Source: Atherinomorus stipes (lineage: Eukaryota > Chordata > Actinopteri > Atheriniformes > Atherinidae). From it: a stretch of DNA of 64,000 bases. The DNA lies in the NCBI GenBank assembly GCA_023101725.1, contig JALJCO010007106.1, forward strand, positions 1-64,000. Direction: 5' to 3'. Numbering within the stretch: the stretch's first letter is position 1; every line of letters begins with the position of its first letter. A model generated the notes under the pieces. The model made no database searches. It was not told the DNA's origin and was given only the letters and a program-made list of their open reading frames with translations. This document shows, in pieces, positions 1 to 61,419 of this stretch. A program made the translations under genes and the position numbers.

Positions 1-1150
1 CGATTACTCGAGTAATTCGAGTAACTCGATTCAGTAAAATTGCTCGAGGCAAAATAACTGCCTCGAGGATTCGTTACATTACTCTTTGCATTTTGCGCAT
101 CCGCCCGGATGGTTTTTCTGTTGCACAACGTTAACGCAAGGAACGTTCCGCCCGGACTGGTATTTCTGTTGAACATAATAACGTAATAATAATAACGTAA
201 CTAAAGTGGAGGGAGGAAAAACTGTATGGGACCCTACAAACTGGACCGAAAGGGAGAGGAAACTCAGTACCCTCTCCGCGGTTCGGTACGCGCGTGATCC
301 ATGACATAGAAATGATATAAGTCCTTTATTTATTTGTATAATCCGTGGATTTGGCTGCGCCTGCTCAGTAAAGGCAGTTCAGAGCGGGTCCGTCTGCTCT
401 GCCCTCCGTGTGCTGCGCGGCCTCCGAAACTTAACTAGACCGTTTTAATCAATGGTTTAGTCGCAACCGGGGACCCGCAGCTCGAGCAAGAAGCACGCTG
501 TCACAGCTCTCTAAATATGGGCGTCGAGTCTGTTTTTGACAGAGCAGCTTCCAGAATCAGCTCATTAGTTCAGATAGGAGGAAATCAGACGTAGAAGTAG
601 CAGAAAGCATCCGGTGACTTTCAATATAAAAGCCCCTTCAAGTTTACAGTAGCTGAACTACATCAAACGTTACATTACCAGTGATACCAGGTTAAAAGTT
701 TATCAGAGGGTCTCAGCAGTTTTTTTTTTTTTTTTTAATTTTCATAACAATAAATAAATTATTTTTTTAAAACTGTTGGGAGTCGGTTCAGCAGGTGCTG
801 ATCATCCTTTCATTTATACTGCAGTGTTGTGGACTTGAATATGTATTTAGGTCCCCTAATGAACGGCCAATTGTTTCCATTTCAGTAAAGCAGAATTAAA
901 TGTGCAGATGTGGAAGCAACAATTAAACAATTACGTTTTTGGCAGAGAAGCGGGGGGTCATCAGTGCTGCATTCAGGGAAAACTCAGCACTGTAGAACTC
1001 TGAAAGCTAGAAATTCTAGCTCTTACAATCAATTTAAGTTGTGAAACTTAAAAAACTTGCAAAATGTCCAATTTATCCGATTACTCGATTAATCGTCAGA
1101 AGAATCGCTAGATTACTCGATTACAAAAATAATCGATAGTTGCAGCCCTA
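1..1150 (-). mobile_element. hAT-like element nested in X copy 1 (left end cut)
   Basis: The right end reads GTTGCAGCCCTA (to 1150) and is followed by aagacaag (1151-1158), the complement of the 8-bp target duplication cttgtctt that brackets the same insert in X copy 2. Subterminal runs of CGATTACTCGAG/TAATCGA repeats are characteristic of this common fish non-autonomous family. No transposase frame is present. Sharing the same insertion site in both X copies means that it entered X before X was copied. Confidence 0.8.
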
Positions 1151-1406
1151 AAGACAAGTTCACACTTGGGATAGAGTAAAGTTTAATGGGGGAAAAATTT
1201 GAATTAAAAAAAAAAAAATAATTATAAGCTGTTTTGTCATTTTAAGCCAGGCATTTTTTAATCATTGATGTCAGTCCCAACTGATTTGTCAAAAAGCATT
1301 TTCCCCAAAATACTTAATGTATAATGGCTAAAATCCAAAAACAACTTCAATAGACTTTCAGAAATTCTTGTAAACTATTGGTCATGACCACTTTAAAACA
1401 TTTAAG

Positions 1407-1597
1407 CAGGGGTCTCAAACTGCTTCCAGAAAGGGCCCTGTGACTGCAAGTTTTCATTCATTCAGCACCAGAGTCTATTCATTTCATCAAGTTTTCAATA
1501 TAAGAGTAAACTCAATGAAATGAGTTGTCTTTTTTTCTTGGTTGGAAAGAAAATCTCCAGTTACAGGACCCTCTTTGGAACGAGTTTGCGCCCCTTG
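1407..1597. mobile_element. Small hAT-like MITE inside X copy 1
   Basis: A 191-bp element running from CAGGGGTCTCAAACTGC to GAGTTTGCGCCCCTTG with imperfect terminal inverted repeats. It is flanked by catttaag and cattaaat, an approximate 8-bp duplication. The same insert sits at 49391..49583 in X copy 2, so it is part of the X core. No coding capacity. Confidence 0.6.
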
Positions 1598-2235
1598 CAT
1601 TAAATAAAAAACTTGAGCTGCTTAGATGCTAAATATGACAAAATGAGGAGGGTTAGGGTTGCACAATTATTAAATTTGACAGACTTCAGTTATGGTTTCA
1701 TTGCTTTATTCATTGTTTAAATGTCATTGTTTAAAACAATTAAAACAACTGCCCCAAAACAATTATAGCCTACTAAGTGGATGCTTTTTGGGGAGTTTTC
1801 CCAAACGTGTAAATTATATTTATTTCCAATACGCCCATAAATGCAAACAGACAATCAGGTCATAATGATATGATCAAAGACAGATGTGAGAGGAAAGCGG
1901 GAGGAAGAGCTGCAAATAAAAGGCCAAAAACAGTAAAATAATAGAAATGATGCTCAGGTTTGGCTGTTGGAGGCGGAGGAGGGAGGAGGAGGCTGTCAAA
2001 CGCTGCGCTTGTGCAGGTGCATGCTGGGATTTATACCTGGCCAAGTACGCACGAGCCTCCTCTGATGCATGCTCGGTAAAATGGGCGGAGAAAGTTTTCA
2101 TCCGGGATTTCCTGTGAACTTGCTGAGAAGCGAACTTTTTAATGGAACATGACTTGAACCGCGGGTGATAAAGTTTTACGAGTCCACGAGCCCGCAAGTA
2201 CGCACAAGTACGCAGATTGAGAAACGGCCCTGGTT

Positions 2236-3380
2236 GCAGCCCAAAGCACTGTGGCACCCAGTGGCTACCCGTGGCACCGAGTGGCAGCCAAAGCACTGTG
2301 GCATCCGGTGGCACCCTGTGGCACCTAGTGGCACCCCGTGGCACCTAGTGGCAGCCCAAAGAACTGTGGCACCCCGTGGCACCCTGTGGCACCTAGTGGC
2401 ACCCCGTGGCACCTAGTGGCAGCCCAAAGCACTGTGGCACCCCGTGGCACCCTGTGGCACCTAGTGGCACCCCGTGGCACCCTGTGGCACCTAGTGGCAC
2501 CCCGTGGCACCCTGTGGCACCTAGTGGCACCCTGTGGCACCTAGTGGCAGCCCAAAGCACTGTGGCACCCGGTGGCACCCCGTGGCACCCTGTGGCACCC
2601 TGTGGCACCTAGTGGCAGCCAAAAGCACTGTGGCACCCCGTGGCACCCCGTGGCACCTAGTGGCACCCCGTGGCACCCTGTGGCACCTAGTGGCACCCTG
2701 TGGCACCTAGTGGCACCTAGTGGCAGCCCAAAGCACTGTGGCACCCCGTGGCACCTAGTGGCACCCCGTAGCACCCTGTGGCACCTAGTGGCACCCCGTG
2801 GCACCCTGTGGCACCTAGTGGCACCCCGTGGCACCCTGTGGCACCTAGTGGCACCCCGTGGCACTCTGTGGCATCTAGTGGCAGCCCAAAGCACTGTGGC
2901 ACCCGGTGGCACCCCGTGGCACCCTGTGGCACCCTGTGGCACCTAGTGGCAGCCCAAAGCACTGTGGCACCCCGTGGCACCTAGTGGCACCCCGTGGCAC
3001 CCTGTGGCACCTAGTGGCACCCTGTGGCACCTAGTGGCACCTAGTGGCAGCCCAAAGCACTGTGGCACCCCGTGGCACCTAGTGGCACCCCGTGGCACCC
3101 GGTGGCACCTAGTGGCACCCCGTGGCAGCCCAAAGCACTGTGGCACCCCGTGGCACCCGGTGGCACCCTGTGGCACCTAGTGGCACCTAGTGGCACCCTG
3201 TGGCACCCTGTGGCACCTAGTGGCACCCTGTGGCACCTAGTGGCACCTAGTGGCACCCTGTGGCACCTAGTGGCACCTAGTGGCACCCTGTGGCACCCTG
3301 TGGCACCTAGTGGCACCCTGTGGCACCTAGTGGCAGCTCAAAGCACTGTGGCACCCCGTGGCACCTAGTGGCACCTTGTG
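2236..3380. repeat. 10-bp satellite array of X copy 1 (about 1.15 kb)
   Basis: Tandem decamers GTGGCACCNN, mainly GTGGCACCCC, GTGGCACCCT and GTGGCACCTA, punctuated by an 18-bp variant GTGGCAGCCCAAAGCACT. The variants recur in blocks, giving a loose higher-order unit near 48 bp. Because 30 bases hold three units, all six frames stay open for long stretches and translate to a WHPVAPSGT-like decapeptide. These frames are by-products, not genes. The array is longer than its partner in copy 2 (about 1.15 kb against about 0.73 kb). Confidence 0.95.
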
Positions 3381-3476
3381 GCAGCTGCCAGAAGTGCTGC
3401 CACTGCCACATTTTGAGCCAGGCCCTGCTGCATTTCATAGCATCACAGCTACAAAAAAATTCAAGCGAAAACAAGA

Positions 3477-3589: not shown

Positions 3590-6035
3590 TATATACATTA
3601 TTGCAGTAATACTGTCGTTAAATAAGAAATGGAATTGCTGTTTTTTTACAGACATGTCATGATGTTTCTCATTCTTTCAAAATTCCTGTGATTCAGGTTG
3701 CATTTTTAGATAAATTTTTTCCAACATATTTTGTAAGTAAAGAAAGTAGGTCAGTACACAGATTTTTTTATTAGCAAAGCATGTTTAATATGTCTTTAGC
3801 TGCTTTTTAAACGAAATCACTGAGTCCACAGATGTCAGGCTGAGAGTCCCAGAAGGAGGGAGCCACTGCTGCAAAGGCCAGAGTCCAGAGTCCGTTATAA
3901 ACGTGGACGACATGATCAGATATTTTTGCTTTAAAAAAAACAGAAGTAAAAAAAAAAACGTTCAGTTTAGTTTTGAAAGCAGTTCCTGGTCAAGTTTGAA
4001 CGTTCCATGCGACGTGCGCGCTCCCGTGACGAGTTATTTTTCAGCGAAAACACGCTACACTTCTCCTGTACCTGTGCGCGGCCCCGCAGCGGACAAGGAG
4101 AGATCACCTGGCCACGGAGCGTGTGCATGAAGTAGGCCTACATGCACGAGAAATACGGCGATCGTGTTTATGTTCAATCTTCCAGAAAACGCATAAAAAT
4201 ATTTCTTTATTCAAATTTCGAGTTAAAATCAGAGAATGATCAGCTGAAGTTTCACAGTTAAATGGAAGTTGTCTGAGTCAGAGAGCTGAACAGGAAGTCA
4301 CACGACTGACTACAGGTGAATAAAAGCTGATCAGAGTTTACCTCATCTTTCTTTATTCCAAGGACAGAAAAACTACCTGGATCCTCTGAAAGAAAACAAA
4401 CAAAACAGCAGTGTTGTTCATACTCACCTTTATTCAGGACTAAGGTTCCATCTTGTTGCTGTCCACTTTCTCTTTCGTCTCTCCACCCTGCATTTACCTG
4501 AAGTCACGTGAGCTAAAAGGAATTTCGGCACCTCCCAGCTTCTCCGCCTCCTCCTCCTCTACTTCACACTTCTTCTCTTCAGTAAATCTAATCTTATTTC
4601 ACAAGAAAACCTTCTTTAGTCACTTCACTAAAATCAGCTTCAACATTTCATATTTTGTCTTGTTCTTTTTTTGTTATAGCCTACCAGCTGGAAGAAGGGG
4701 GAGGAAAGGAAGCCATTGCCTTTGATTAAAACAATACAAAAGCTTTATTAAAAGTTATAAAATAAACAAAAGTTCCAAAACAATTAGAAAATGTCTCCAA
4801 GAAAAAGTTCGCAGTGGCTGGCGGCGTTTCGACCGTAGAGCCCCCCCTTTGGCTGCCGCTGCGCTCTGCTCCACCTCCCCACAGCTGTTGCCAATTTAGT
4901 CAGGGGAGGTGCCCTTTCTCCAGGTGCTAATCACTTCATTAAAACTCCCACTAGCTTGGAGATAGAAAAACACACAAACACACTAAAATAATCATGCTGT
5001 TGTTCTGTGAGACCGTCAGGAAGAGGAGCAGGAATGGTTAACGATGCAAAAAAACAGCTAGTGGGAAGAAGAAGTCCAGTTTCTGGCAGCACCAGATAAC
5101 ATCACCCCTGTGATGAGGCTACTCTTTTTTGTCTTTTTTTAACTTTACTGAACAGTAAAGTTGCAGCACATCATCACAAAAACCACCTTACAGCTAAGTT
5201 TATTTGGACTTTAAACTTAAAACTTTTACCTTTTGTTCTCTAGACACATTTAATTTTATGTAAGTTCCATTTAAATATATGAACGAGTATGCTGCCTGAA
5301 TATTGTTGTGCTGTAGGCTTTTTCTTGTATTACATTTTACTGTTACTCACGGCATTTCTATAAAGGCTGCACATCACACAAATCAATATATAATTCAATT
5401 TAAACAAATCCGTTCTGCTACCCCCATGTTACTCTTTAATAAAGATAAATATTCGTTCAGTGGCAAAGCTGTTTTTTGTTTTTTTAAACCAAACGTTTCT
5501 TCATATCGCCCTAAGGGTTAATGTGAGGAACGCAGGCCATTATCGGGAAATACTGACCTTCATGGCGAATGCAGACCCCGCTCATGATACGGCTACCTGC
5601 AAATAATAAAATTCAAATTAAAGTCTTCTATTTTTGCGAGGATCACATAACTTTCTGATGTTTTACGCTAACAATAAAATAGTTCCCCACGGTTGGGGCA
5701 CTTGTTGCTTGGCAACGTTTGCTCGTTGCGGCTGGAATTTGGGCTAGCATCGACTTGTTCTGTATGTTGAACTGGACATTTCCTCCTCTGCTGTTAGCTG
5801 TATGCGTCTTACCACTGGTCTTCTTTTTGTCTTTTTCGTTTTGGAGAGGGTGAATCCTTAAACTCGGTCGAGACCCAAAATCTCCTCACTTGCCAAAGAT
5901 GTTAAAATTAATTTGGAAGTCATCCTTTTTTTGGTGACGAGAATATCGCTAAGTGCTCACGCGCTGTTTCCGTTGCCGTTAAGTGACCGGACTACTTGCG
6001 ATGCGGAGGGATATTAGGTTTACCGTAAATTTAAA
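3590..6035. repeat. Block D1: low-copy duplicated segment
   Basis: This segment is homologous, in the same orientation, to 47150..47536 joined to 51786..54195. Landmarks are a gattcaggttg segment near 3690, the junction gacgagttatttttcagcg near 4020-4045, a donor-like tactcaccttt near 4420, and gtgaccggactacttgc near 5985. It is the uninterrupted version of the site occupied by X in the other copy. No protein family was recognised. A possible 15-codon signal-like exon (minus strand, start 4421, donor after 4377) aligns with a 52-bp version at 52144..52195, but the two differ in length and phase. I cannot say whether D is a decayed gene or a transposon. Confidence 0.6.
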
Positions 6036-20429: not shown

Positions 20430-20841
20430 TTAAATTCACAGCAGTCTTTCATTTTGCCACGTAGGGGCTTTATCTATGTGATTCAGAGATTCCAGCATAA
20501 AAGATCATCATTCCTGGTTGTAACAGTGTTCGCTGTTCCCATTACCAGCAGTGCCTCTGTCTCTGCCTGATCTGGAAACGATCCCAATGTTTGATGTTTA
20601 AAAAGCGTCTTGTTCAACGAAAAAGAAACGTATTCTCACCGCCACCCGCCCGAACTACATAAATATCCGCCCACACCTTAACCATGATATGAATCTTTGT
20701 CATTTCTATCTGCTAAACAGAGTTTTTGCGTGTTACCGTCGGGTATCTGAACTGCTGCGGGACTCTGGTGAACACCTGCGGTCAGACGCGCAGCTGCTTG
20801 GCTGCGCTGTTCAAACGGTGGGAAGTTCGTCTCTTTTCAGA

Positions 20842-36396: not shown

Positions 36397-36478
36397 AGGG
36401 AGTCACATTAAAACTACTGTAATAAATCAACTAATCTCAAGATTTAAGATTCTAAAAAGTCTGGTTCACTTCTCTCAA

Positions 36479-37346: not shown

Positions 37347-37557
37347 TTAATGTGAGTCTGAGGGTCCGTCTCCGAAGTCTGGAAGGTTTCTGTTGGACGA
37401 TTAAATCTTCAGATATTTTTCGATGAACAGACAGAAGTACTGACCTTGTCCACAGGACTTTTCACTGGTTTATATATAAATATTCATTAAAGGAACATCA
37501 GTTCCAGAGACTACATGAAGCTCAAACATCCTGAAACCTCTGTTTCACTTCTCTTAC

Positions 37558-37674
37558 CGTAAATCTGAAGGTCCAGCTCCATTACTGAAGTCTGCATAGA
37601 TTGGTAGTGATCGGTCACTTTTCATAGACAGACAGTCGGGTTCTGGAGTCTCTGTTCTTCTGTTGTACAAATGT
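37558..37674 (-). CDS. NLR gene A N-terminal repeat exon, copy 1
   Basis: 117 bp between acceptor TGTGTTTGCAG and donor GTAAGAGA. It encodes HLYNRRTETPEPDCLSMKSD then RSLPIYADFSNGAGPSDLR. The C-x-S-M-K-S-D-R-S core followed by F-S-x-G is the hallmark of the repeated N-terminal exons of teleost NLRC3-like proteins. It enters with one base and leaves with two, so exons of this type can be added or skipped without shifting the frame. Same protein as the copy at 40305..40421. Confidence 0.8.
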
Positions 37675-38369
37675 CTGCAAACACAAACATGTTGTCATTC
37701 ATTTCACATCAATCTGGGAGAAATTCTCTGATGAAAACCTGAAGAAGCTCTGAACACAAACTGCTGCAGAGAATCAGAAGCTTTCATGTTTGGATCAGTC
37801 CTCTTAGATCAGATTACAGCTTTTCTGACCCGTTTCCTCTACAGCAACTTTACACACAGATCAGGAACTCTGGAGGCTTCTGCTTCTGACCTCATGAGTT
37901 CCTCTGATTGGGCCTGATCAGGACGTTCTCTGTGAGATTAAACTGATCACATTTTAACTGATGAAGACGAGACAGAATGAAGAGTGGAACCAGTGATGAT
38001 GAGATGAAACCAGAAATCCCTTTTAGACAGATCAGGAACATTCATGGTTCTGATTTCATGATTTAAAATTCCTCTTTACTGGTCTACCTAAAAAACAGAC
38101 ACCTTCAGCTCAGGAATGAGGAGTTAATTCAACTTTAGGTTCAATCCACGGTGCAGAGATCCTGGTTTTGTCTGAAACTAAATACAGACGTCTCTGACCA
38201 GATCCTCTGCTGTCAGATCCGTCACTTGTACATGAACTAAAACAGATTTTAGAACCTGGATTACTGAGCAGGTTTTTCATTTCCAGCTCCAGTGTTTGAG
38301 TCTAGCATTTAGTTGCTATGGCAACAAGCTCAACTAAGATGCTGACCCCTTCATGAGTACTTCACTTAC

Positions 38370-38428
38370 TTTGTGTCTGAAGGTTCTGGTCCAGTCCTGA
38401 AGTCTGGAGGTCTGGTTGGGTCAGCCAA
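38370..38428 (-). pseudogene. Degenerate copy of the start exon (unit 1)
   Basis: Encodes LADPTRPPDFRTGPEPSDT with donor GTAAGTGA as in the start exon at 46435, but the ATG is now TTG, and the upstream half with its acceptor is replaced by a retroelement-tail repeat. Not usable as a start. Confidence 0.75.
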
Positions 38429-38621
38429 AACAAGCTTCTTCAATTCAATTAATTTAAGTTTCTGACTTAAACTCCTGTGATGGACTGGTGACCTGTCCAG
38501 GTCTACCTGCCTCTCACCTGTTAATATGCTGGGATAGACTCCAGCTTCCATGTGACATGAGTTTCTAATGAGAATAGAAAATGGATGGATGGAAGAACAC
38601 TAAAACTACTGTCACAGTCTC

Positions 38622-38951
38622 CATTTTTCTGGAAACTGCGGATCCAGGGAGGAATTCCCATCCTTGGGGATCCGTATGAGGGTGGGGGTGGGGTTCTCAA
38701 GTCTTTTCATGACCTTAAAGCTCGGTATCAGCTCCCACAGATGCTGGGGCGTAAACTCATTATTTCTCAGTGGAAGACCCCCTCTACACCATCTGCTACT
38801 CTTTGGTATCACCAACTGGGGAGACTGGCTGCATTGGAACGCCTTTCATACAGACTGCTGAATAAAGTGGAGAGCTTTCACCTGAAGTGGGACCTGAATC
38901 TTTCCAAAATACAAGAACCAACTTTAGGGTCAGCATGGGATGACCTAAAGA
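38622..38951 (+). pseudogene. L1-like LINE fragment with internal deletion
   Basis: Encodes SPFFWKLRIQGGIPILGD and KSFHDLKARYQLPQ, then directly MLGRKLIISQWKTPSTPS. The two parts are separated by about 874 bp in the longer copy at 41371..42690. They resemble the C-terminal domain of fish L1/Tx1-type ORF2. The deletion junction follows ctcccacag and has no GT-AG intron signs. Confidence 0.75.
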
Positions 38952-40013: not shown

Positions 40014-40304
40014 ATGTTAATCATAAAAAAAAAACTGATGTCATAAATCAACTCTCAAAATTAAAGATTCTGAAAAAGTCTGGTTCAGTTCTCTTAATGT
40101 GAGTCTGAGGGTTCGTCTCTGAAGTCTGGAAGGTTTCTGTTGGACGATTAAATCTTCAGATATTTTTTGATGAACAGACAAAAGTACTGACCTTGTCCAC
40201 AGGACTTTTCACTGGTTTATATATAAATATTCATTAAAGGAACATCAGTTCCAGAGACTACATGAAGCTCAAACATCCTGAAACCTCTGTTTCACTTCTC
40301 TTAC

Positions 40305-40421
40305 CGTAAATCTGAAGGTCCAGCTCCATTACTGAAGTCTGCATAGATTGGTAGTGATCGGTCACTTTTCATAGACAGACAGTCGGGTTCTGGAGTCTCT
40401 GTTCTTCTGTTGTACAAATGT
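40305..40421 (-). CDS. NLR gene A N-terminal repeat exon, copy 2
   Basis: 117 bp, same splice sites, phase and encoded protein as 37558..37674 (core CLSMKSDRSLPIY). The identity shows a very recent tandem duplication or conversion. Confidence 0.8.
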
Positions 40422-41116
40422 CTGCAAACACAAACATGTTGTCATTCATTTCACATCAATCTGGGAGAAATTCTCTGATGAAAACCTGAAGAAGCTCTGA
40501 ACACAAACTGCTGCAGAGAATCAGAAGTTTTCATGTTTGGATCAGTCCTCTTAGATCAGATTACAGCTTTTCTGACCCGTTTCCTCTACAGCAACTTTAC
40601 ACACAGATCAGGAACTTTGGAGGTTTCTGAATCTGACCTTCTGAGTTCCTCTGATTGGGCCTGATCAGGACGTTCTCTGTGAGATTAAACTGATCACATT
40701 TTAACTGATGAAGACGAGACAGAATGAAGAGTGGAACCAGTGATGATGAGATGAAACCAGAAATCCCTTTTAGACAGATCAGGAACATTCATGGTTCTGA
40801 TTTCATGATTTAAAATTCCTCTTTACTGGTCTACCTAAAAAACAGACACCTTCAGCTCAGGAATGAGGAGTTAATTCAACTTTAGGTTCAATCCACGGTG
40901 CAGAGATCCTGGTTTTGTCTGAAACTAAATACAGACGTCTCTGACCAGGTCCTCTGCTGTCAGATCCGTCACTTTTACATGAACTAAAACAGATTTTAGA
41001 ACCTGGATAACTGAGCAGGTTTTTCATTTCCAGCTCCAGTGTTTGTGTCCAGCATTTAGTTGCTATGGCAACAAGCTCAACTAAGATGCTGACCCCTTCA
41101 TGAGCATTTCACTTAC

Positions 41117-41177
41117 TTTGTGTCTCTGAAGGTTCTGGTCCAGTTCTGAAGTCTGGAGGTCTGGATGGGTCAGCTAA
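41117..41177 (-). pseudogene. Degenerate copy of the start exon (unit 2)
   Basis: Like 38370..38428 but with two extra bases (gtgtctctgaagg) that shift the frame before the donor, and TTA in place of the start codon. Confidence 0.75.
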
Positions 41178-41370
41178 AACAAGCTTCTTCAATTCAATTA
41201 ATTTAAGTTTCTGACTTAAACTCCTGTGATGGACTGGTGACCTGTCCAGGTCTACCTGCCTCTCACCTGTTAATATGCTGGGATAGACTCCAGCTTCCAT
41301 GTGGCATGAGTTTCTAATGAGAATAGAAAATGGATGGATGGAAGAACACTAAAACTACTGTCACAGTCTC

Positions 41371-42690
41371 CATTTTTCTGGAAACTGCGGATCCAGGGAG
41401 GAATTCCCATCCTTGGGGATCCGTATGAGGGTGGGGGTGGGGTTCTCAAGTCTTTTCATGACCTTAAAGCTCGGTATCAGCTCCCACAGAGCCAGTTTTG
41501 GAAACATCTACAGCTCTGGCTTCCGATGCTCCAGATCTTTGAATACCACAGCACACCACCTCCAACTACAGATCTGGGCATGAAAAAGTTCCTCCTTTTT
41601 CTGTTAGAAGTGGTGCAGTGATAGTGCACTATTACTGCACTATCCCTGGCTTAACGATTTGTCCCGCGAATACGTCATCACGCACGGTGTCCAAACTTGG
41701 CGTGTGGAAACGTCCTTGTTCCGGGCGTTCATCTATGCTCTGCAATCATTTCCCTTGGGCACACAGGTGTTTCTCTGTGCGATTGAATTAGCAGACAAGT
41801 CACTGGTAAGTGGCTGGCAGTCAGCAGGCAGTCGGCAGAAAGGGAAACTTTTTCATGCCTGCATCTGTATAAGCTGTCTTACTTATATGAGGAAGGATTT
41901 TGGTGGAGTCCATAAAGCTTCTAAATACTATTCAATGCTCTTAAAAAGCACACACAAAGGGCTCCCACCCTAAGATCAGCTTGGGAAACTGACCTCAATA
42001 TGTCCTTTACAGATCAGGAATGGTCTATGATCCTACAGAATACTAAGAAAGTATCTAGAGAACTGAGAACAAGACTTGTTCAAATTATACTATTGCACAG
42101 AATTTACTGGTCACCACGTAGAATAGATCGGGCGAACCTCATTCAGGCTCCGGGATGCTGGAGATGCCAGACTGGGGTGGGCACACTGAGCCATATGATC
42201 TGGAACCCTCCTAAAATCCAGGATTTCTGGACTGAGGTCTATGAATTTACAACTCAGTTGTACAGCAGGACATCCTGTTCCTTACAAGGTTATTTATCTT
42301 AGGAGATCCATCCCGCCTTAAACATTTTTCATCAAATACTGCTGAATGGGTGCAGATTCCCTTGATGCTGGGGCGTAAACTCATTATTTCTCAGTGGAAG
42401 ACCCCCTCTACACCATCTGTTACTCTTTGGTATCACCAACTGGGGAGACTGGCTGCATTGGAACGCCTTTCATACAGACTGCTGAATAAAGTGGAGAGCT
42501 TTCACCTGAAGTGGGACCCGAATCTTTCCAAAATACAGGAACCAACCTAAAGGTCAGCATGGGATGAACTAAAGAGAGCCATGCAGTTTTTCGTTTAATT
42601 TATTTATTTTTTACACTGTTCTTGTTCTCTGTTTTTCTCTGTTCTACCACTGCTCTGTTATTGTACTGAAGCAATTTTGATCTGTGTCTG
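41371..42690 (+). pseudogene. L1-like LINE, longer fragment
   Basis: Pieces in order: WKLRIQGGIPILGDPYEGGG and SQFWKHLQLW; then YYSMLLKSTHKGLP; then a frame 42000..42302 with CWRCQTGVGTLSHMIWNPPK, the Cys/His region at the end of L1-type ORF2; then KLIISQWKTPSTPSVTLWYH and ALERLSYRLL, the extreme C-terminus. Broken by stops, frameshifts and an insert at about 41605-41890. An A/T-rich 3' tail follows near 42590-42680. Antisense to NLR gene A. Confidence 0.8.
41608..41804 (+). other. Exon-like open segment inserted in the L1 fragment
   Basis: Bounded by a pyrimidine tract with acceptor tttttctgttag and a strong donor gtaagtgg. The frame is open throughout: KWCSDSALLLHYPWLNDLSR, then YVITHGVQTWRVETSLFRAF and LGTQVFLCAIELADKSL. 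It has high CpG content compared with its surroundings and does not fit the L1 reading on either side. I do not recognise the protein. It could be a captured host exon or part of another transposon. Confidence 0.35.
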
Positions 42691-47150: not shown

Positions 47151-47536
47151 GAGTTACTTTTTAAAAAGATATCAATGTGTCTTTTATCCCAAACTGCTCT
47201 GATTCAGGTTGAATTTTATACATTTCTTTCCAACACATTTTGTGAGTAAAGCAAGTAAGTCAGTAAACAGATTTTTAAGTAGGCTACAGCAACTTTAAAG
47301 ATAAAAATCATACAGTGATTCAAAATACCCGGGTCGTTATAAACGACCTCTGAAAAATATAATCAGATATTCCTGTATCCAGTCATTTGTAGTCTGAAAA
47401 TTTTGCTAGGAAAATAGAAAGAAAAAGCCGTCTGTTCATCTGCTTTAACGCCCAGTTTCATCTTGAAAGCAGTTCCTGGTCTAGTTCGATGTTTCCATCG
47501 TTTAATGTGCGGCCTGGACGTGATGAGTCATTTTTC
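47150..47536. repeat. Block D2, left part
   Basis: Homologous in the same orientation to about 3655..4040. It ends in gtgatgagtcatttttc, exactly where X is inserted. It continues at 51786. Confidence 0.75.
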
Positions 47537-47585
47537 CAGCAGGGCCTGGCTCAAAATGTGGCAGTGGCAGCACTTCTGGCAGCTG

Positions 47586-48744
47586 CCACAAGGTGCCACT
47601 AGGTGCCACAAGGTGCCACTAGGTGCCACGGGGTGCCACAGTGCTTTGGGCTGCCACTAGGTGCCACTAGGTGCCACTAGGTGCCACAGGGTGCCACTAG
47701 GTGCCACAGGGTGCCATGGGGTGCCACTAGTTGCCACAGGGTGCCACAGGGTGCCACGGGGTGCAACAGTGCTTTGGGCTGCAACTAGGTGCCACAGGGT
47801 GCCACGGGGTGCCACTAGGTGCCACAGGGTGCCACCGGGTGCCACAGGGTGCCACAGGATGCCACCGGGTGCCACAGGGTGCCACACTGCTTTGGGCTGC
47901 CAATAGGTGCCACAAGGTGCCACAGGGTGCCACTAGGTGCCACGGGGTGCCACTAGGTGCCACAGGGTGCCACAGTGCTTTGGGCTGCCACTAGGTGCCA
48001 CGGGGTGCCACGGGGTGCCACTAGGTGCCACAGGGTGCCACGGGGTGCCACAGGGTGCCACAAGGTGCCACGGGGTGCCACAGGGTGCCACAAGGTGCCA
48101 CGGGGTGCCACTAAGTGCCACTAGGTGCCACAGGGTGCCACAGTGCTTTGGGCTGCCACTAGGTGCCACGGGGTGTCACTAGGTGCCACAGGGTGCCACA
48201 GTGCTTTGGGCTGCCACTAAGGATGGGCGATATTTTATCGTGTGCGATATATCGTCAAAGAAATTCCCCACAATAACAATTTGAATTTATCGTTTTTATC
48301 GTGATATGACAATTTATCAGGTTGTGTTTGCAGTTGCACTACTTTGTTTTTTTAATAAGCCAAGTTAGTTTTGCTGATTGCATCGTTTGAATAAATGTGG
48401 AATTTGGTCTCATATTTCAGACTTGTTTGATTGGTGTCACTTCAATTTTGCAATACGGGTGCACTACTTGAAATTAATTGATATAGTTTAGTGGCTTCTA
48501 GTATGTTGTAGGGCTTTCAAGACAGAATTTAGTGACAGATTTATAATACAAAATATTTTGCTGATAGTTTTTATCGTCACTTATCGTTACCGTGATAAAT
48601 AACAGAAATTATCGAGATACATTTTTTAGTCCATATCGCCCATCCCTAGCTGCCACTAGGTGCCACAGGGTGCCACGGGGTGCCACAGGATGCCACCGGG
48701 TGCCACAGGTAGCCACTGGGTGCCACAGTGCTTTGGGCTGCCAC
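47586..48744. repeat. Left satellite array of X copy 2 (interrupted)
   Basis: Decamers AGGTGCCACN (complement of GTGGCACCNN) with the 18-bp variant AGTGCTTTGGGCTGCCAC. It is interrupted at 48218..48648 by a hAT-like insert. Its inner end (gtagccactgggtgccac) aligns unit by unit with the start of the array in copy 1. Confidence 0.93.
48218..48648. mobile_element. hAT-like MITE inserted in the satellite array (431 bp)
   Basis: Ends TAAGGATGGGCGATATT and ATATCGCCCATCCCTA, flanked by gctgccac on both sides (48210-48217, 48649-48656), an exact 8-bp duplication of the satellite variant. Absent from the matching place of copy 1, so it is younger than the X duplication. Confidence 0.92.
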
Positions 48745-49390
48745 CAGGGCCGTTTCTAAATCTGCGTACTTGTGCGTACTTGCGGGCTCGTGGACTCGTA
48801 AAACGTTATCACCCGCGGTCCAAGTCATGTTCCATTAAAAAGTTCGCTTCTCAGCAAGTTCACAGGAAATCCCGGATGAAAACTTTCTCCGCCCATTTTA
48901 CCGAGCATGCATCAGAGGAGGCTCGTGCGTACTTGGCCAGGTATAAATCCCAGCATGCACCTGCACACGCGCAGCGTTTGACAGCCTCCTCCTTCCTCCT
49001 CCTCCCTCCTCCGCCTCCAACAGCCAAACCTGAGCATCATTTCTATTATTTTACTGTTTTTGGCCTTTTATCTGCAGCTCTTCCTCCCGCTTTCCTCTCA
49101 CATCTGTCTTTGATCATATCATTATGACCTGATTGTCTGTTTGCATTTATGGGCGTATTGGAAATAAATATAATTTACACGTTTGGGAAAACTCCCCCAA
49201 AAAGCATCCACTTAGTAGGCTATAATTGTTTTGGGGCAGTTGTTTTAATTGTTTTAAACAATGACATTTAAACAATGAATAAAGCAATGAAACCATAACT
49301 GAAGTCTGTCAAATTTGATAAATGTGCAACCCTAACCCTCCTCATTTTGTCATATTTAGCATCTAAGCAGCTCAAGTTTTTTATTTAATG

Positions 49391-49583
49391 CAAGGGGCGC
49401 AAACTCGTTCCAAAGAGGGTCCTGTAACTGGAGATTTTCTTTCCAACCAAGAGAAAACAGACCACTCATTTCATTGAGTTTACTCTTATATTGAAAACTT
49501 GATGAAATGAATAGACTCTGGTGCTGAATGAATGAAAACTTGCAGTCACAGGGTTCCTTTCTGGAAGCAGTTTGAGACCCCTG
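49391..49583. mobile_element. Small hAT-like MITE inside X copy 2
   Basis: Counterpart of 1407..1597: CAAGGGGCGCAAACTCG to GTTTGAGACCCCTG. Confidence 0.6.
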
Positions 49584-49836
49584 CTTAAATGTTTTAAAGT
49601 GGTCATGACCAATAGTTTACAAGAATTTCTGAAAGTCTATTAAAGTTGTTTTTGGATTTTAGCCATTATACATTAAGTATTTTGGGGAAAATGCTTTTTG
49701 ACAAATCAGTTGGGACTGACATCAATGATTAAAAAATGCCTGGCTTAAAATGACAAAACAGCTTATAATAATTTTTTTTTTAATTCAAATTTTTCCCCCA
49801 TTAAACTTTACTCTATCCCAAGTGTGAACTTGTCTT

Positions 49837-51001
49837 TAGGGCTGCAACTATCGATTATTTTTGTAATCGAGTAATCTAGCGATTCTTCTGACGATTAATC
49901 GAGTAATCGGATAAATTGGACATTTTGCAAGTTTTTTAAGTTTCACAACTTAAATTGATTGTAAGAGCTAGAATTTCTAGCTTTCAGAGTTCTACAGTGC
50001 TGAGTTTTCCCTGAATGCAGCACTGATCCCCCCCCCCCCGCGCTTCTCTGCCAAAAACTTAATTGTTTAATTGTTGCTTCCACATCTGCACATTTAATTC
50101 TGCTTTACTAAAATGGAAACAATTGGCCGTTCATTGGAGGACCTAAATACATATTCAAGTCCACAACACTGCAGTATAAATGAAAGGATGATCAGCACCT
50201 GCTGAACCGACTCCCAACAGTTTTAAAAAATCATTTATTTATTGTTATGAAAATTAAAAAAAAAAAAAAAACTGCTGAGACCCTATGATAGACTTTTAAC
50301 CTGGTATCACTGGTAATGTAACGTTTGATGTAGTTCAGCGACTGTAAACTTGAAGGGGCTTTTATATTGAAAGTCACCGGATGCTTTCTGCTACTTCTAC
50401 GTCTGATTTCCTCCTATCTGAACTAATGAGCTGATTCTGGAAGCTGCTCTGTCAAAAACAGACTCGACGCCCATATTTAGAGAGCTGCGACAGCGTGCTT
50501 CTGGCTCGAGCTGCGTGTCCCCGGTTGCGACTAAACCATTGATTAAAACGGTCTTGTTAAGTTTCGGAGGCCGCGCAGTACACGGAGCTCAGAGCAGACG
50601 GACCCGCTCTGAACTGCCTTTGCTGAGCAGGCGCAGCCAAATCCACGGATTATACAAATAAATAAAGGACTTATATCATTTCTATGTCATGGATCACGCG
50701 CGTACCGAACCGCGGAGAGGGAACTGTGTTTCCTCTCTCTTTCGGTCCAGTTTGTACGGTCCCATACAGTTTTTCCTCCCTCCACTTTAGTTACGTTATC
50801 ACCATAAAGCTGTTATGTTCAACAGAAATACCAGTCCGGGCGGAACGTTCCTTGCGTTAACGTTGTGCAACAGAAAAACCATCCGGGCGGATGCGCAAAA
50901 TGCAAAGAGTGAATTTAACGAATCCTCGAGGCAGTTATTTTGCCTCGAGCAATTTTATGAATCGAGTTACTCGAATTACTCGAGTAATCGTTGCAGCCCT
51001 A
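49837..51001 (+). mobile_element. hAT-like element nested in X copy 2 (1165 bp)
   Basis: Ends TAGGGCTGCAAC and GTTGCAGCCCTA, flanked by exact 8-bp cttgtctt (49829-49836, 51002-51009). Subterminal taatcgagtaatc repeats. Shared with copy 1. No transposase. Confidence 0.93.
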
Positions 51002-51049
51002 CTTGTCTTACAGTACTACACTCTAGAACCACCTTAGCAGGCTCTAAAA

Positions 51050-51736
51050 TGGCACCTAGTGGCACCCCGTGGCACCTAGTGGCAGCCCAAAGCACTGTGG
51101 CACCCCGTGGCACCCTGTGGCACCTAGTGGCACCCTGTGGCACCTAGTGGCACATAGTGGCACCCCTTGGCACCTAGTGGCAGCCCAAAGCACTGTGGCA
51201 CCCCGTGGCACCCTGTGGCACCTTGTGGCACCTAGTGGCAGCCCAAAGCACTGTGGCACCTAGTGGCACCCCGTGGCACCTAGTGGCAGCCTGTGGCACC
51301 TAGTGGCAGCCTGTGGCACCTAGTGGCACCCTGTGGCACCTAGTGGCAGCCCAAAGCACTGTGGCACCCTGTGGCACCTAGTGGCACCCAGTGGCACCTA
51401 GTGGCACCCCGTGGCACCCAGTGGCACCTAGTGGCACCTAGTGGCACCCCGTGGCACCTAGTGGCAGCCCAAAGCACTGTGGCACCCCGTGGCACCCCGT
51501 GGCACCTAGTGGCAGCCCAAAGCACTGTGGCACCCCGTGGCACCCTGTGGCACCTTGTGGCACCTAGTGGCACCTAGTGGCACCCCGTGGCACCTAGTGG
51601 CACCCTGTGGCACCTAGTGGCACCTAGTGGCAGCCCAAAGCACTGTGGCACCTAGTGGCACCCCGTGGCACCCTGTGGCACCTAGTGGCAGCCCAAAGCA
51701 CTGTGGCACCCCGTGGCACCCTGTGGCACCTTGTGG
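51050..51736. repeat. Right satellite array of X copy 2
   Basis: GTGGCACCNN decamers with the GTGGCAGCCCAAAGCACT variant, opposite in orientation to the left array. It starts about 40 bp after the nested hAT target duplication. Confidence 0.95.
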
Positions 51737-52143
51737 CAGCTGCCGGAAGTGCTGCCACTGCCACGTTTTGAGCCTGCTGTCTCTCCATTTTTCAGCGGAG
51801 GCACGAAAACTCACAACAAACTGTTGAAGCCGTGCGCGGCCCCGCGACGGACAGGAAGAGATCACATGGCCACGGAGCGTGTGCACGAAGTACATGCACG
51901 AGGACATAAGGAGAAAGTGGGTTTATGTTCAATCTGCCAGAAAACGCATAAAAACGGTTTCTTGAGTCAAATTTCGAGTGAAAATCAAACAATGATCAGC
52001 TGAAGTTTGAGTTAAATGGAAGCTGTCCGAGTCAGAGCTGAACAGGAAGTAAGACTGACCGCAAAAGTGAATAAAAGCTGTTTGTGCTGTCGGAGAATCA
52101 AAGTTTATCTCTTCTTTCTCTACTAAGCAGACAGAAAACCTAC

Positions 52144-52647: not shown

Positions 52648-53787
52648 TAGGGGATTATCACGCTTACCGGAAGTTGCCGGCTTTTGACACTTCCTCTTCC
52701 GGGCCATGTTAACGACAGCCGTTCCTGCTCTGTTATACTGTTTAAATCGGATGAACTCCAAACATATTGAAGTTTTCATTCTAGACTGAAGTGATACTGG
52801 ATCAAAAGCTGGATCAAAGCGATCGATTCGCCGCGGTGAAGGGCCGAACTTTATAATAAAACACACGTTTGTTTGTCCCCGGTGGGGCACGACACCGGCA
52901 CTTCACAGCATGCTAGCATTAGCCAGCTAGCGTTTACTGACGTGCTTAACATTGTGCGTCTTAAAACACACAAACATCTGAAAATCGGGTCTGTACCTCC
53001 CCGTTTCCAGTGGAACAACTGGGGACTGCCAAGAAAGGAGACGCTTTCAGATGATTGTGTGTTTTCAGCCGCACAAAGTTAGGCACGTTATCAAGCTGGC
53101 TAATGCTTACAGGCTAACACGACTGTGCAGTCTGCCGGCCACAAACAAACGTGTCGTTTTATTATAAAGTTCGGTCCTTCACCGCGGTGAATCGGTCGTT
53201 TTGATCCACTTCTTCCTCAGCATCACTTCAGTCTGGAATGAAAACTTGGCATTGGCGTTTATCCGATTTACAAAGTTTAACAGAGTAGTAGCTGGCGGAC
53301 TTTTGTTAGCAGGTTAGCATTCGCCAGCTTGATGACGTGCCTAACTTTGTGCGGCTGAAAACACACAAGCATCTGAAAGCGTCTCCTTTCTTGGCAGTCC
53401 CCAGTTGTTCCACTGGAAACGGGGGGGTACAGACCCGATTTTCAGATGTTTGTGTGTTTTAAGACGCACAATGTTAAGCAAGTCAGTAAACGCTAGCTGG
53501 CTAATGCTAGCATGCTGTGAAGTGCCGGTGTTGTGCCCCACCGGGGACAAACAAACGTGTGTTTTATTATAAAGTTCGGCCCTTCACCGCGGCAAATCGA
53601 TCGCTTTGATCCAGCTTTTGATCCAGTATCACTTCAGTCTAGAATGAAAACTTATATATGTTTGGAGTTTATCCGATTTAAACAGTATAACAGACCAGGA
53701 ACGGCTGATGTTAACATGGCCCGGAAGAGGAAGTGCCAAATGTTTCAACTTCCGGAAACCGGAACGCGGAAATGTGATAATCCCCTA
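52648..53787. mobile_element. Long palindromic (foldback-type) element, 1.14 kb
   Basis: Termini TAGGGGATTATCAC and GTGATAATCCCCTA; the arms (about 52648-53095 and 53333-53787) are inverted copies, and the middle holds a third partial copy (about 53155-53290). Both arms contain the same frames on opposite strands (GQTNVCFIIKFGPSPR and NNWGLPRKETLSD), and GGAAGT/ACTTCC motifs near each end. It is absent from block D1. No matching target duplication was found. Confidence 0.75.
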
Positions 53788-58100: not shown

Positions 58101-61100
58101 AAATGCATTTGCAACTAAAATCGGGTGAAAACGAAGGCTCAGACATTTTATTGTAGTGAGAACTTAAAGGTGATAGCAACAACTTTTTCATCAAAACAAT
58201 TAATTTAAAAAAAAAACATCAACAGAACAGCTAGAGGGTTGCAGAATAAAGGTATTAATTTGACCAAAATTTTTTTTTATCGTATATAAATAACTGTTTT
58301 ATCAATTTTGACTGGTCCAAAATGTGTAGGCATTTACAGTTCTTGAGCAAAAATTTGTTGATCCACACTTTGAGGCAGTCACTGTAATCAGGTGTTTTCT
58401 GTAACGATCAATAAAACTTTTGCACCTGTTGACAGGTATTTTGACCCACTGTTCATGAGCAAGGCGCTTTAATTTGTCTGGGACAGTTTGTATGTTTGTT
58501 TTTTTCAAATTATCCTTTAAATAAAAATTTTAAATTGAAATTTTATTTGACTAAAATACTATTTAGTTATTTTTATAAATTTATTATTACTTTGTTTCAT
58601 GTTATTTGAATTACTAGTGTGAATTTAGCCTTTTCTTTAATGGAGGATTTGTAAACTTTCAAGCACAACTGTACATCTGGTTACCATGCCAACGTCACGC
58701 CACCAAATCCGGACCTCTTGGGCCAGTCTCCAGAAGGTTTTTCGTGTTCTTGTGCCCACACACCTAACTCAAATTAAGGAGTCATTGTGCTGAGCTTGAT
58801 TGGCTGTTGGATTAATTAGCTTTGCAAACGAGGTCATGTTTTCAGTAGCATTGGTTTGTCTGTCTGTCTGTCAGCAATTTTACGGAAAAAGAACTAGACG
58901 GATTGACCTGAAATTTTCACCAGCCGTGTGCTTCAGCTCAAGAACAAACCCATCAAATTTTGGATGTGATCTGGATCCAAGGATTCTTTTTCATTGTGAG
59001 GCCAAATTTAGTCATTTTTCCATAAAACTCTGTACAAATGGGCCGAGTGTTTGGTAAAAAATTACAAGAAAGGATCTCAAAGAGTTCTATAATGTTTTGA
59101 AAGTTCCAGAGAAAATTCTAGATATTATGATCCAGAAAACACAAAAATAAGGGAGTCTGCGTTCTCCGAGTGCTTTTCTAGTTTAATTTGAGTCAGGTGT
59201 GCTGAAGCAGGGAAATGGACCCCACGAGGTCCAGATTTGGTGATCCCTGTTCTACACTAAAGGATTCCACTACTTTTGCAACTCCTGGACATGTAAGTTA
59301 AAATGTTTGCTAACGCTAATTAACGGTTATTCAGTTCTGTAATGTTGCTAATTGAGTAAGCGAGTGTTAGCGCGCCACCTGCTGGCGGGGAGGAATTAAA
59401 CTCGTAGCTATCACCTTTAAAGTTAAACTTAACATAACTGGAACGAGACCTGACTGAGTCTATTTTATGGCACTATTTTGTCCCTGCTGTCTGTTTAACA
59501 TTCCTAACTATGATGCAACTACAGAACCCCAGGAGATCTTGAGTGGATCTCCAGTCAACGTGATATTTACTGACCTCAACGGCAGCTTATGAAACTATTT
59601 GGACTCACAGAGCTTTCCTGCAGTTCCTCACAGCTGGGAGAAGTCTCATCCGTCCCCCTGCTGTTGTGTTGTACTGCTCCAGGTCCAGCTCGTCCAGAAC
59701 CTCCTGGGACATCTGCAGCATGTAGGCCAGAGCTGAGCAGTGGATCTCTGACAGTTTCTTCTTGGATCTGTTCTCTGACTTCATGAACTCTTGGATCTCC
59801 TGATAAACGGAGACGTCGTTCATCTCCATCAGACAGTGGAAGATGTTGATGCTTCTGTCTGGAGAGATTTTATCGTTATTCGTGTACTTCAGGTTGTTGA
59901 TGACTCTCTGGATGATTTCAGGATTGTTCTCGCTCTGATTGGTCAGATCTGCTAAGAGGGTCTGGTTGGGTTCCACAGAGAGGCCATGAAGGAAGCGAAC
60001 AAACAGGTCCAGGTGGCCGTTTTCACTGTAGAGGGATTTTATCACGGCTGTTTTCAAGAAGTTATCGACAGACGAGTTGCTGTATTTGTCTCCGAGGAAG
60101 GCTTTCAGGACTTCTGTCTTCCCGCTGGTGTAACAGTGCATCATGTAGACTGCAGCCAGAAACTCCTGAACACTCAGATGAACGAAGCAGTAAACTGCTT
60201 TCTGGAAGATCACACACTCTCTTCTGAAGATCTCCGTACAAACTCCTGAGAACACCGAGGCCTCTGTGACATCAAGACCACACTGGTCCAGGTCTTCTTG
60301 GTAGAACATGATGTTTCCTTTCTCCAGATGTTCAAACGCCAGCCTCCCCAGCTTTAGAAGAACTTCCCTGTCAGCCTCCGTCAGCTCCTGTGGACTCGTC
60401 TCATGTCCCTCATGGTACTTGTTCTTCTTCCTCTTTGTCTGGACCACCAGGAAGTGCGAGTACATGTCCGTGGTGGTCTTGGGCAGCTCTCCTCTCTGCT
60501 CTGTGGTCAACATGTCCTCCAGAACCGTAGCAGCGATCCAGCAGCAGACTGGGACTCCACACATGATGTGGAGGCTCCTGGACGTCTTTATGTGGGAGAT
60601 GATTCTGCTGGACATCTCTTCATCACTGAACCTCCTCCTGAAGTACTCCTCCTTCTGGACATCAGTGAAGCCTCGGACTTCTGTTAGCCTGTCCACACAT
60701 GTAGGAGGGATCTGATTGGCCGCTGCAGGTCTGGAAGTGATCCAGATGAGAGCCGAGGGCAGCAGATTCCCCTTGATGAGGTTTGTCAGCAGCACGCTGA
60801 CTGAAGACTTGTGTGTGACGTCAGAAACCAGCTCAGCGTTGCTGAAGTCCAGTGAAAGTCTGCTTTCATCCAGACCATCAAAGATGAAGAGAAGTTTGCA
60901 GACAGCCAGCTGCTCTGCTGGGATCTTCTGGAGCGTTGGATGGAAAACACGGAGCAGCTGGAGAAGACTGTACTGATCATCTCTGATCAAGTTCAGCTCC
61001 CTGAATGAAAGCAGGACCACCACGCTGACATCCTGGTTCTCCAAGCCCTCTGCCCAGTCCAGAGTGAACTTCTGCACTGAGAAGGTTTTTCCAACACCAG

Positions 61101-61397
61101 CGACGCCGTTGGTCAGAACCACTCTGATTGGTCCACGTTGGCCAGGTAAGGCTTTAAAGATGTCGTGGCACCTGATTGGAGCGTCATGGAGGGTGTTGAT
61201 CTTGGAGGTTTCCTCCAGCTGCCTCACCTCATGTTGGGTATTAACCTCTTCACTCCATCCCTCTGTGATGAAGAGCTCAGTGTAGATCCTGTTGAGGAGG
61301 GTTCTACTTCCTGCTTCATCAGTTCCTTCAGTCACATGTTCACATCTCCTCCTCAGACTGAGCTGATGTTCATCTAAAACCTCCTGCAGACCAACAT
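55164..61397 (-). CDS. NLR gene B: NLRC3-like FISNA-NACHT-LRR gene (3' part, intact)
   Basis: Exons 5' to 3' on the minus strand: FISNA-NACHT 61397..59609, LRR 57631..57455, 56770..56594, 56160..55987, 55788..55615, terminal 55173..55164. All are open and in matching phase, giving about 830 residues for this part. No RING or N-terminal repeat exon is present between 61.4 and 64 kb, so the 5' exons lie beyond the window or are missing. The expected role is a cytosolic innate sensor: NACHT binds and hydrolyses NTP and drives oligomerisation, LRRs sense or restrain. There is no B30.2 domain. It neighbours gene A in the same orientation, as in fish NLR clusters. Confidence 0.8.
55615..55788 (-). 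CDS. LRR exon 4 of NLR gene B
   Basis: 174 bp, acceptor CTGTTTTCAG, donor GTCAGTAA. Encodes [37 protein letters not shown], then LESP-type end RWRLKTLR. Intact, standard phase. Confidence 0.88.
55987..56160 (-). CDS. LRR exon 3 of NLR gene B
   Basis: 174 bp, acceptor ATTTTCTTCAG, donor GTCTGTTG. Encodes [37 protein letters not shown] and [10 protein letters not shown]. Intact. Confidence 0.88.
56594..56770 (-). CDS. LRR exon 2 of NLR gene B
   Basis: 177 bp, acceptor CCTTCTTCAG, donor GTCAGACG. Encodes [38 protein letters not shown] and [10 protein letters not shown]. One codon longer than the 174-bp form, within the normal range of this exon type. Confidence 0.88.
57281..57397. repeat. Near-perfect 117-bp hairpin
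   Basis: Arms of about 50 bp (ccgcacactatcgctctcat and atgagagcgatagtgcggga) around a loop of roughly 16 bases (ttaaccaaaacatcac). A palindromic MITE is the simplest reading; a small-RNA hairpin is possible. Confidence 0.85.
57455..57631 (-). CDS. LRR exon 1 of NLR gene B
   Basis: 177 bp, acceptor TGGAACCGCAG, donor GTCAGTCC. Encodes [38 protein letters not shown] and [10 protein letters not shown]. Intact and GC-richer than its neighbours. Confidence 0.9.
58302..58508 (-). pseudogene. Tc1-like transposase C-terminal remnant
   Basis: The frame includes [20 protein letters not shown] and [18 protein letters not shown], the W-x-x-IP ... C-x-x-L ... Y-x-x-R-L ... V-x-x-x-K tail of fish Tc1-like transposases. 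Only the last 60 or so codons remain. Confidence 0.6.
58510..59600. other. Intron of gene B between NACHT and the first LRR exon
   Basis: Interspersed-repeat-like text near 58840-59100 (gaccgatt-type receptor-less repeat, ctgaaattttcaccag). No gene. Confidence 0.4.
59609..61397 (-). CDS. FISNA-NACHT exon of NLR gene B (intact)
   Basis: 1789 bp, acceptor TTTCCAGCAG, donor GTGAGTCC. In the 613-codon open frame from 61446 the first 16 residues are intron read-through. FISNA begins [12 protein letters not shown] (about residue 17). Walker A GVAGVGKT is at 114-121, Walker [11 protein letters not shown] at 185-194; [13 protein letters not shown] (sensor 1 type) follows. Winged-helix and HD2 regions run to AVRNCRKAL. 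All expected NACHT motifs are present, so the NTPase core should work. Its 5' 1.29 kb is nearly identical to gene A; the HD2 part differs at about one residue in three. Confidence 0.95.
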
Positions 61398-61419
61398 CTG
61401 CTGGAAACAAGAACAAATG

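What the first reader, a model, noticed from the sequence alone, without database searches (positions are those of the whole stretch)
47537..51785. Foldback-like transposon whose terminal inverted repeats are made of a 10-bp satellite
Seen directly: two inward-facing arrays of GTGGCACCNN units, each capped by a matching unique terminus (CAGCAGG...TGGCAGTGGCAGCACTTC), an 8-bp host duplication catttttc, and an undisturbed paralogous site in block D1 (gagttatttttcagcg). Known: Drosophila FB and Galileo-type foldback elements have long inverted repeats built from short tandem units. I know of no described fish element with this unit, but cannot search. Inference: this is a mobile unit that spreads satellite arrays, non-autonomous and perhaps hAT-driven.
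Basis: partly seen in the sequence, partly recalled or inferred. Interest (0 to 1): 0.85.

Follow-up and report, generated by a model that had tools for sequence, protein, structure and literature searches.

The report
Fish foldback transposon with decamer arms
In this fish genome, tandem arrays of a 10-base repeat are the two arms of a jumping DNA element with fixed ends, and traces of a lost gene inside it hint that it shrank from a kind of transposon not usually linked to this foldback design.

Summary
Window 47537-51785 is a 4249-bp element with inward-facing GTGGCACCNN arrays, two fixed ends and an exact 8-bp duplication, CATTTTTC; a paralogous block has the site unfilled at 4035-4042. 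A second copy, cut by the contig start, fills window 1-3430. The 1.18-Gb genome holds 67 matches to the terminal core, many in convergent pairs. Of 17 copies with both ends, 10 have exact 8-bp duplications, against 0 of 268 mismatched flank pairs. Arms have 6-222 units and vary independently. A 103-bp copy has an exact duplication. The interior occurs in both orientations.

It is a non-autonomous, foldback-type transposon. The hAT idea is not supported: hAT-like pieces are nested insertions. The window's interior keeps the 3' end of a lost gene; its last exon, kept in three other copies, matches C-termini of fish proteins, two of which carry an Ulp1 or a CxC4 (KDZ-transposase-associated) domain. 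I infer a KDZ/Zisupton-type parent, but none was found, and the KDZ domain was detected in no relative.

The parts
47529..47536 (.). left target-site duplication CATTTTTC
   Evidence: identical to 51786-51793 and abutting the element
47537..47583 (+). L-end of copy A: CAGCAGGGCCTGGCTCAAAATGTGGCAGTGGCAGCACTTCTGGCAG and on
   Evidence: same end in the other copies; 67 genome matches to its core, L- and R-ends together
47584..48217 (-). left arm: inverted array of GTGGCACCNN with 18-bp units
48218..48648 (.). nested MITE-like insertion in the left arm, also in L045 and L054 at the same place; possible duplication GCTGCCAC
   Evidence: shared; flanks; bounds by eye; the duplication lies inside the array, so it is weak
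48649..48740 (-). inner remainder of the left arm
48745..49256 (+). shared interior, part away from the relic gene's 3' end
   Evidence: 95% to L060, shared by most copies
49263..49284 (+). relic of the lost gene: last two codons, stop (49269-49271) and AATAAA (49278-49283)
   Evidence: same 22 bases follow the last exon in L060
49262..49836 (+). 3' region of the lost gene
   Evidence: 97% to L060 and C4169, 76% to the older relative L069
49837..51001 (.). nested hAT-like insertion TAGGGCTGCAAC...GTTGCAGCCCTA with duplication CTTGTCTT (49829-49836 and 51002-51009)
   Evidence: L069 has the site unfilled (CTTGTTTT); hAT label recalled
51002..51049 (+). remainder of the shared interior
   Evidence: continuous with 49836 in L060 and L069
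51050..51738 (+). right arm: array of GTGGCACCNN with 18-bp units
51739..51785 (-). R-end of copy A: GAGAGACAGCAGGCTCAAAACGTGGCAGTGGCAGCACTTC (reverse strand)
   Evidence: same end in the other copies; 24 exact genome matches to its outer 20 bases
51786..51793 (.). right target-site duplication CATTTTTC
1..3430 (-). copy B, reverse orientation, cut by the start of the contig; arm 2251-3383, L-end 3411-3430
   Evidence: 96.5% to copy A; L-end; no flank on the other side
4035..4042 (+). unfilled paralogous site TATTTTTC
   Evidence: alignment of joined flanks to the paralogous block

Best explanation
A non-autonomous cut-and-paste DNA transposon with foldback architecture: two fixed, slightly different ends (L and R), each backed by an inward-facing array of GTGGCACCNN decamers, around a non-coding interior. 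Shown: fixed ends, 8-bp target duplications at unrelated sites, an unfilled paralogous site, arms of very different and independent length, an interior found in both orientations, nested insertions that were multiplied with the element. Inferred: it arose by internal deletion from an autonomous transposon whose multi-exon gene is of the KDZ-associated CxC/SAP/Ulp1 type (Zisupton-like); it moves when such a transposase is supplied in trans and binds the ends and perhaps the repeated units; the arms grow and shrink by slippage or unequal exchange; exchange between the inverted arms flips the interior.
For: 67 core matches, reversed control 0. Exact 8-bp duplication in 10 of 17 copies with both ends (9 independent sites), 7 of 8 in 2, exact with one extra base in 1; 0 of 268 mismatched pairs reach 7 or 8. 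Unrelated flanks for most copies. 103-bp copy with exact duplication. Sixteen of 20 interiors in one orientation, 2 in the other, 2 mixed. Seven copies with the L-end T differ by a mean K2P of 0.008 over the shared interior. Relic 3' end in the window; last exon in L060, C4169, C7142; exon matches C-termini of P0002, P0004, P0064 with E 8e-14, 2e-12, 2e-11 in a set of 119; P0002 has Ulp1, E 7e-8; P0064 has CxC4, E 2e-8. Zisupton makes 8-bp duplications (PMC12730594, passages).
Against: No complete copy with a transposase was seen. The KDZ domain PF18758 was in none of the 11 relatives scanned nor among the precomputed labels of the 119 relatives (these are limited to 235-750 residues by the search), and the genome search for it did not complete. 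The relatives were found with a hand-joined C505 gene that is only 34% identical to the element's exon. Four of 17 copies have no clean duplication (L042 partial and shifted; L054, L058, L060 none). Structure prediction of a relative was poor.
Confidence: 0.65

Rival explanations
1. The same foldback transposon, but moved by a hAT transposase; the relic gene is a captured host or foreign fragment.
For: 8-bp duplications also fit hAT (recalled; hAT usually 8 bp also in PMC12730594, passages). A hAT-like gene lies inside the C4169 copy (label by my reading).
Against: The C4169 gene interrupts a stretch that is continuous in L049; the window's hAT-like piece has its own duplication and an unfilled site in L069. 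The relic 3' end is shared by most interiors.
Confidence: 0.12
2. The same foldback transposon, but of the Mutator or the P/THAP type.
For: Most foldbacks have been assigned to Mutator and Galileo to P (PMC4079207 section 17; PMC3688188 abstract). A THAP domain lies next to the older relative on C1344 (E 4e-13).
Against: No Pfam family in the 4 interior ORFs scanned. The ends differ from those of zebrafish Pdre2. The THAP stretch follows the 3' end of the relic and was not seen inside a copy with both ends.
Confidence: 0.12
3. A plain minisatellite whose inverted arrangement and dispersal come from segmental duplication, not transposition.
For: Some copies do share flanks: L049/L053, L046/L058 on one side, L017/L033, L020/L028, L038/L052. 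1468 of 3493 decamer-pair sites were not placed.
Against: Other copies have unrelated flanks, the same two ends and exact duplications; a 103-bp copy has the ends, hardly any array and an exact duplication.
Confidence: 0.03

Closest known systems
Tetris, Drosophila virilis (PMC4079207: abstract, sections 10 and 17)
   Same: Foldback build: outer domain, tandem repeats in the arms, variable middle without coding capacity, 8-9 bp (rearranged copies 9-10 bp) duplications, arm repeat number varies, no autonomous copy known.
   Different: About 220-bp repeat unit and long flanking domain, insect, suggested to be Mutator; here a 10-bp unit with an 18-bp companion, duplications of exactly 8 bp, two different ends, fish.
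Galileo, Drosophila (PMC3573991 abstract; PMC3688188 abstract and section 2.6)
   Same: Long internally repetitive arms, deleted and two-arm-only copies, frequent rearrangement, recent activity; transposase-binding sites within some arm repeats.
   Different: P-type transposase is known there; no THAP transposase was seen inside copies here and the repeat unit is unrelated in length.
Zisupton / KDZ transposons (PMC12730594 and PMC9297572, passages; original paper only seen as a reference)
   Same: 8-bp duplications, multi-exon genes, present in fish; the relic exon's relatives carry a KDZ-associated CxC domain.
   Different: Arrays and foldback arms are not mentioned in the passages seen; PF18758 was not detected in the relatives here.
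Pdre2, the zebrafish P-type element (PMC10983969, passages)
   Same: Fish, 8-bp duplications, many internally deleted copies.
   Different: 13-bp inverted repeat CATACCTGTCAAC and its subterminal repeat are unrelated to the ends here.

Membership tests
Foldback elements (structural group) | long inverted arms built of short tandem repeats, variable in length | tested here: met
   inward arrays in 20 of the 22 copies mapped (L059 with short ones); L039 has almost none and copy B is cut so only one arm is seen
Foldback elements (structural group) | mobile: fixed ends and target duplications at unrelated sites | tested here: met
   10 of 17 exact, 0 of 268 in the control; flanks compared
KDZ / Zisupton | 8-bp target duplications | tested here: met
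   the value for Zisupton from PMC12730594 passages
KDZ / Zisupton | KDZ transposase domain (PF18758) encoded by the element or its parent | tested here: inconclusive
   not found in 11 relatives scanned or in the labels; genome searches for it unanswered; no parent gene read in full
KDZ / Zisupton | CxC cysteine-cluster and Ulp1 domains with the transposase (association recalled; CxC named so by Pfam) | tested here: inconclusive
   found in relatives whose C-terminus the exon matches (P0064 CxC4; P0002 Ulp1), not in the element itself
hAT | hAT transposase as the element's own gene | tested here: not met
   the hAT-like gene on C4169 is a nested insertion
P / THAP (Galileo, Pdre2) | ends like those of a known fish P element | tested here: not met
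   Pdre2 end CATACCTGTCAAC against L- and R-ends
P / THAP (Galileo, Pdre2) | THAP transposase in a copy | tested here: inconclusive
   THAP stretch only beside the C1344 relative
Mutator | MULE transposase; duplications of about 9 bp (recalled) | tested here: inconclusive
   duplications are 8 bp; no Pfam family in the 4 interior ORFs scanned

The most novel reading that the evidence does not exclude
The first foldback element from the KDZ/Zisupton lineage, in a vertebrate: a Zisupton-like transposon lost its gene and instead grew two opposed decamer arrays that serve as a repeated platform for its transposase, so that a minisatellite is spread and reshaped by transposition.
Probability: 0.4. 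Interest if true: 0.75.

Novelty: new variant of a known kind. Interest (0 to 1): 0.6.

Why it matters
It shows within one genome how tandem arrays can be carried about by a transposon: the array is the arm of the element and differs greatly between copies, while a 103-bp copy shows that the ends alone are enough to mark an insertion. If the KDZ link holds, the foldback design has arisen in yet another transposon superfamily, which bears on whether repeated arms are working binding platforms or a by-product of unstable inverted repeats. The many copies with known ends, subfamilies and flipped interiors make that question testable.

Tried and rejected
Plain satellite: rejected for the copies read. 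Of 3493 decamer-pair sites in the genome, 2025 were placed inside elements or in array runs next to a terminus (counts, summed); 1468 were not located. hAT as driver: rejected. THAP/P type: considered because of the THAP stretch beside the C1344 relative. Pdre2 ends compared and rejected. Pfam, NCBIfam and PDB searches with the exon or the C505 fragment gave no significant family; the joined C505 tail gave Peptidase_C48 at E 0.0031, below the curated cut-off. The structure prediction of relative P0004 was poor (mean pLDDT 51.7), so no fold search was made. The outer 20 bases of the R-end are less specific than those of the L-end: 214 matches at up to 3 mismatches against 47 in the control, 202 against 9 for the L-end. 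Paper searches whose listings showed no such fish element: (one search was unselective; one search listed 20 of 952 papers, from titles mostly primers and the like). The library holds open-licence papers only, so this is weak evidence of absence. Arm counts: I had entered 40 instead of 37 for the left arm of L060; one search repeats the statistic with 37.
Full report
What is there. Window 47537-51785 is a 4249-bp element. It has an L-end (CAGCAGGGCCTGGCTCAAAA...) and an R-end (GAGAGACAGCAGGCTCAAAA..., read inward), each followed by an array of GTGGCACCNN units pointing inward and mixed with an 18-bp unit, GTGGCAGCCCAAAGCACT. The two ends agree from CTCAAAA on but differ in the outer 13 bases. 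The 8 bases CATTTTTC abut both ends. In the paralogous block (window 3560-4480 was aligned) the flanks align across one TATTTTTC. A second copy fills window 1-3430 in reverse and is cut by the contig start.

Family in the genome. The window is the first 64,000 bases of contig C3724 (75,606 bases) of a genome of 1.18 Gb. The core CTCAAAANGTGGCAGTGGCAGCACTTC with up to 3 mismatches gives 31 forward and 36 reverse matches, 52 of them exact; the reversed control gives none.

Target duplications. Seventeen copies with an L- and an R-end were compared. Exact 8 of 8: 10 (copy A, L039, L044, L046, L048, L049, L050, L051, L053, L055; L049 and L053 are one site on two contigs, so 9 independent sites). 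7 of 8: L056, L057. Exact with one extra base at the L-end: L043. Partial and shifted: L042. None: L054, L058, L060. Mismatched flank pairs gave 0 of 268 at 7 or 8 matches; pairs known to share flanks (L049/L053, L046/L058) were left out of that control. An eighteenth copy, on C3673, has 7 of 8, read by eye. L047 has two R-ends; L052 has two L-ends and an inverted copy of its own left flank. In 11 of 11 duplications counted, the base next to the L-end is G or C.

Arms. In 17 copies (copy A, L042-L046, L048-L051, L053-L058, L060) left arms have 6-222 units and right arms 12-141, without correlation (Spearman 0.11, p 0.67; unit counts, statistic). Read as a code of unit types, the arms show local repeats that differ between arms and copies. 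L049 and L053, one insertion on two contigs whose flanks are 98.5-99.5% identical, differ in both arms, so the arrays change after insertion unless this is assembly error. The 103-bp copy on C4826 (L039) keeps both ends, a few decamers and an exact duplication.

Interior. Twenty interiors were compared (matches of 100 bases or more). Sixteen have one orientation relative to the ends, L055 and L060 the other, L043 and L059 match only in mixed or small pieces. C4169 and, by the position of its exon, C7142 agree with L060. Exchange between the inverted arms is the simplest cause (inference). Nine copies, the window's two among them, share a T in the L-end; seven of these compared over the shared interior differ by a mean K2P of 0.008, at most 0.013. 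Seven of the nine hold the nested hAT-like piece (window 49837-51001), L057 holds part of it, L054 does not. In copy A it has the duplication CTTGTCTT, and the older relative L069 has the site unfilled. Copies A, L045 and L054 also share a MITE-like insertion in the left arm. Insertions inside one copy were thus multiplied with it.

The lost gene. The window's interior from 49262 on matches the 3' end of a gene: two last codons, stop, AATAAA and beyond. In L060 the same stretch follows a 91-residue last exon behind an acceptor-like site. The exon finds 7 matches in the genome: C1351 (L060 itself), C4169 (98%), C7142 (88%, one stop), two pieces on C1344 (78% and 50%), C505 (34%) and C3673 (40%, two stops, directly inside an L-end). 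On C505 upstream pieces could be read in part: a conserved YDYA...EQLF block and an Ulp1-like tail. A search with these pieces joined by eye gave 119 relatives; those with names are mostly fish proteins such as 'HMG domain-containing protein 3-like', and some carry the Pfam labels CxC4, CxC7, SAP or Ulp1. The L060 exon itself matches the C-termini of P0002, P0004 and P0064 along nearly its full length, and P0006, P0110, P0001 and P0075 weakly (7 of 119 at E of about 0.001 or better). P0002 has Peptidase_C48; P0064 has CxC4, 'cysteine cluster associated with KDZ transposases'.

Against this reading. PF18758, the KDZ domain, was found neither in the 11 relatives scanned nor among the labels of the 119, and genome searches for it did not complete. 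No full gene between these ends was seen. The relic could in principle be a captured fragment. A low-confidence structure prediction of P0004 does not help. In favour: Zisupton, of the KDZ group, makes 8-bp duplications (PMC12730594, passages), has many exons and was first characterised in fish (PMC9297572, passages).

How it most likely works. A transposase made elsewhere acts on the two ends and inserts the element with an 8-bp staggered cut (the duplications are shown, the enzyme is inferred). The arms may act as repeated binding sites, as found for two arm repeats of Galileo (PMC3688188 section 2.6), or may be a by-product; nothing here decides this. Their changes in length fit slippage or unequal exchange. 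L052 and L058 (one flank shared with L046, the other not) fit the rearrangements that inverted repeats invite, but could be assembly errors.

Comparison. In build it matches foldback elements such as Galileo and Tetris (parts of papers named under Closest known systems). [quoted passage not shown] A foldback of KDZ type, or one with this decamer, did not turn up in the listings. I file it as a foldback-type element by structure and leave the superfamily open, with KDZ as the best inference.

Noticed in passing
window 19550-20433 and 36477-37350: Two copies of another element with long inverted arms (about 358 and 313 bp, 97% and 92% within a copy); no target duplication longer than 2 bases found near the bounds.
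   Followed up: partly
window 52667-53755: Inverted repeat with 453-bp arms at 95%; no clear target duplication.
   Followed up: partly
window 30913-32727 and 59603-61416: Two ORFs 94% identical that read like NLR-type (NACHT) immune receptors (label by my reading, no family search). Copy A sits between blocks of such a tandem duplication.
   Followed up: no
window 37347-38741 and 40094-41490: Recent tandem duplication, 98% identical.
   Followed up: no
L052 (C5720:291000-300000): L-end, arm and part of the left flank repeated in inverted orientation (238-994 against 4135-3409, 93%), followed by two R-ends with nearly the same flank: palindrome-like rearrangement or assembly error.
   Followed up: partly
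L058 and L046: Flank at the L-end shared over 400 bases at 97%, other flank not: possible exchange through the element.
   Followed up: partly
L069 (C1344), L063, R flank of L054: A THAP domain stretch (E 4e-13) lies downstream of the relic exon in L069; similar tail pieces recur in L063, and by eye the R flank of L054 resembles the same repeat.
   Followed up: partly
duplications next to the L-end: The base next to the L-end is G or C in 11 of 11 duplications: possible target preference.
   Followed up: no
genome, L-end search with up to 3 mismatches: Recurrent near-matches (CACTAGGGGCTGGCTCAAAA, CATCAAGTCCTGGCTCAAAA and others; 202 matches against 9 in the control) may be ends of related families.
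   Followed up: no
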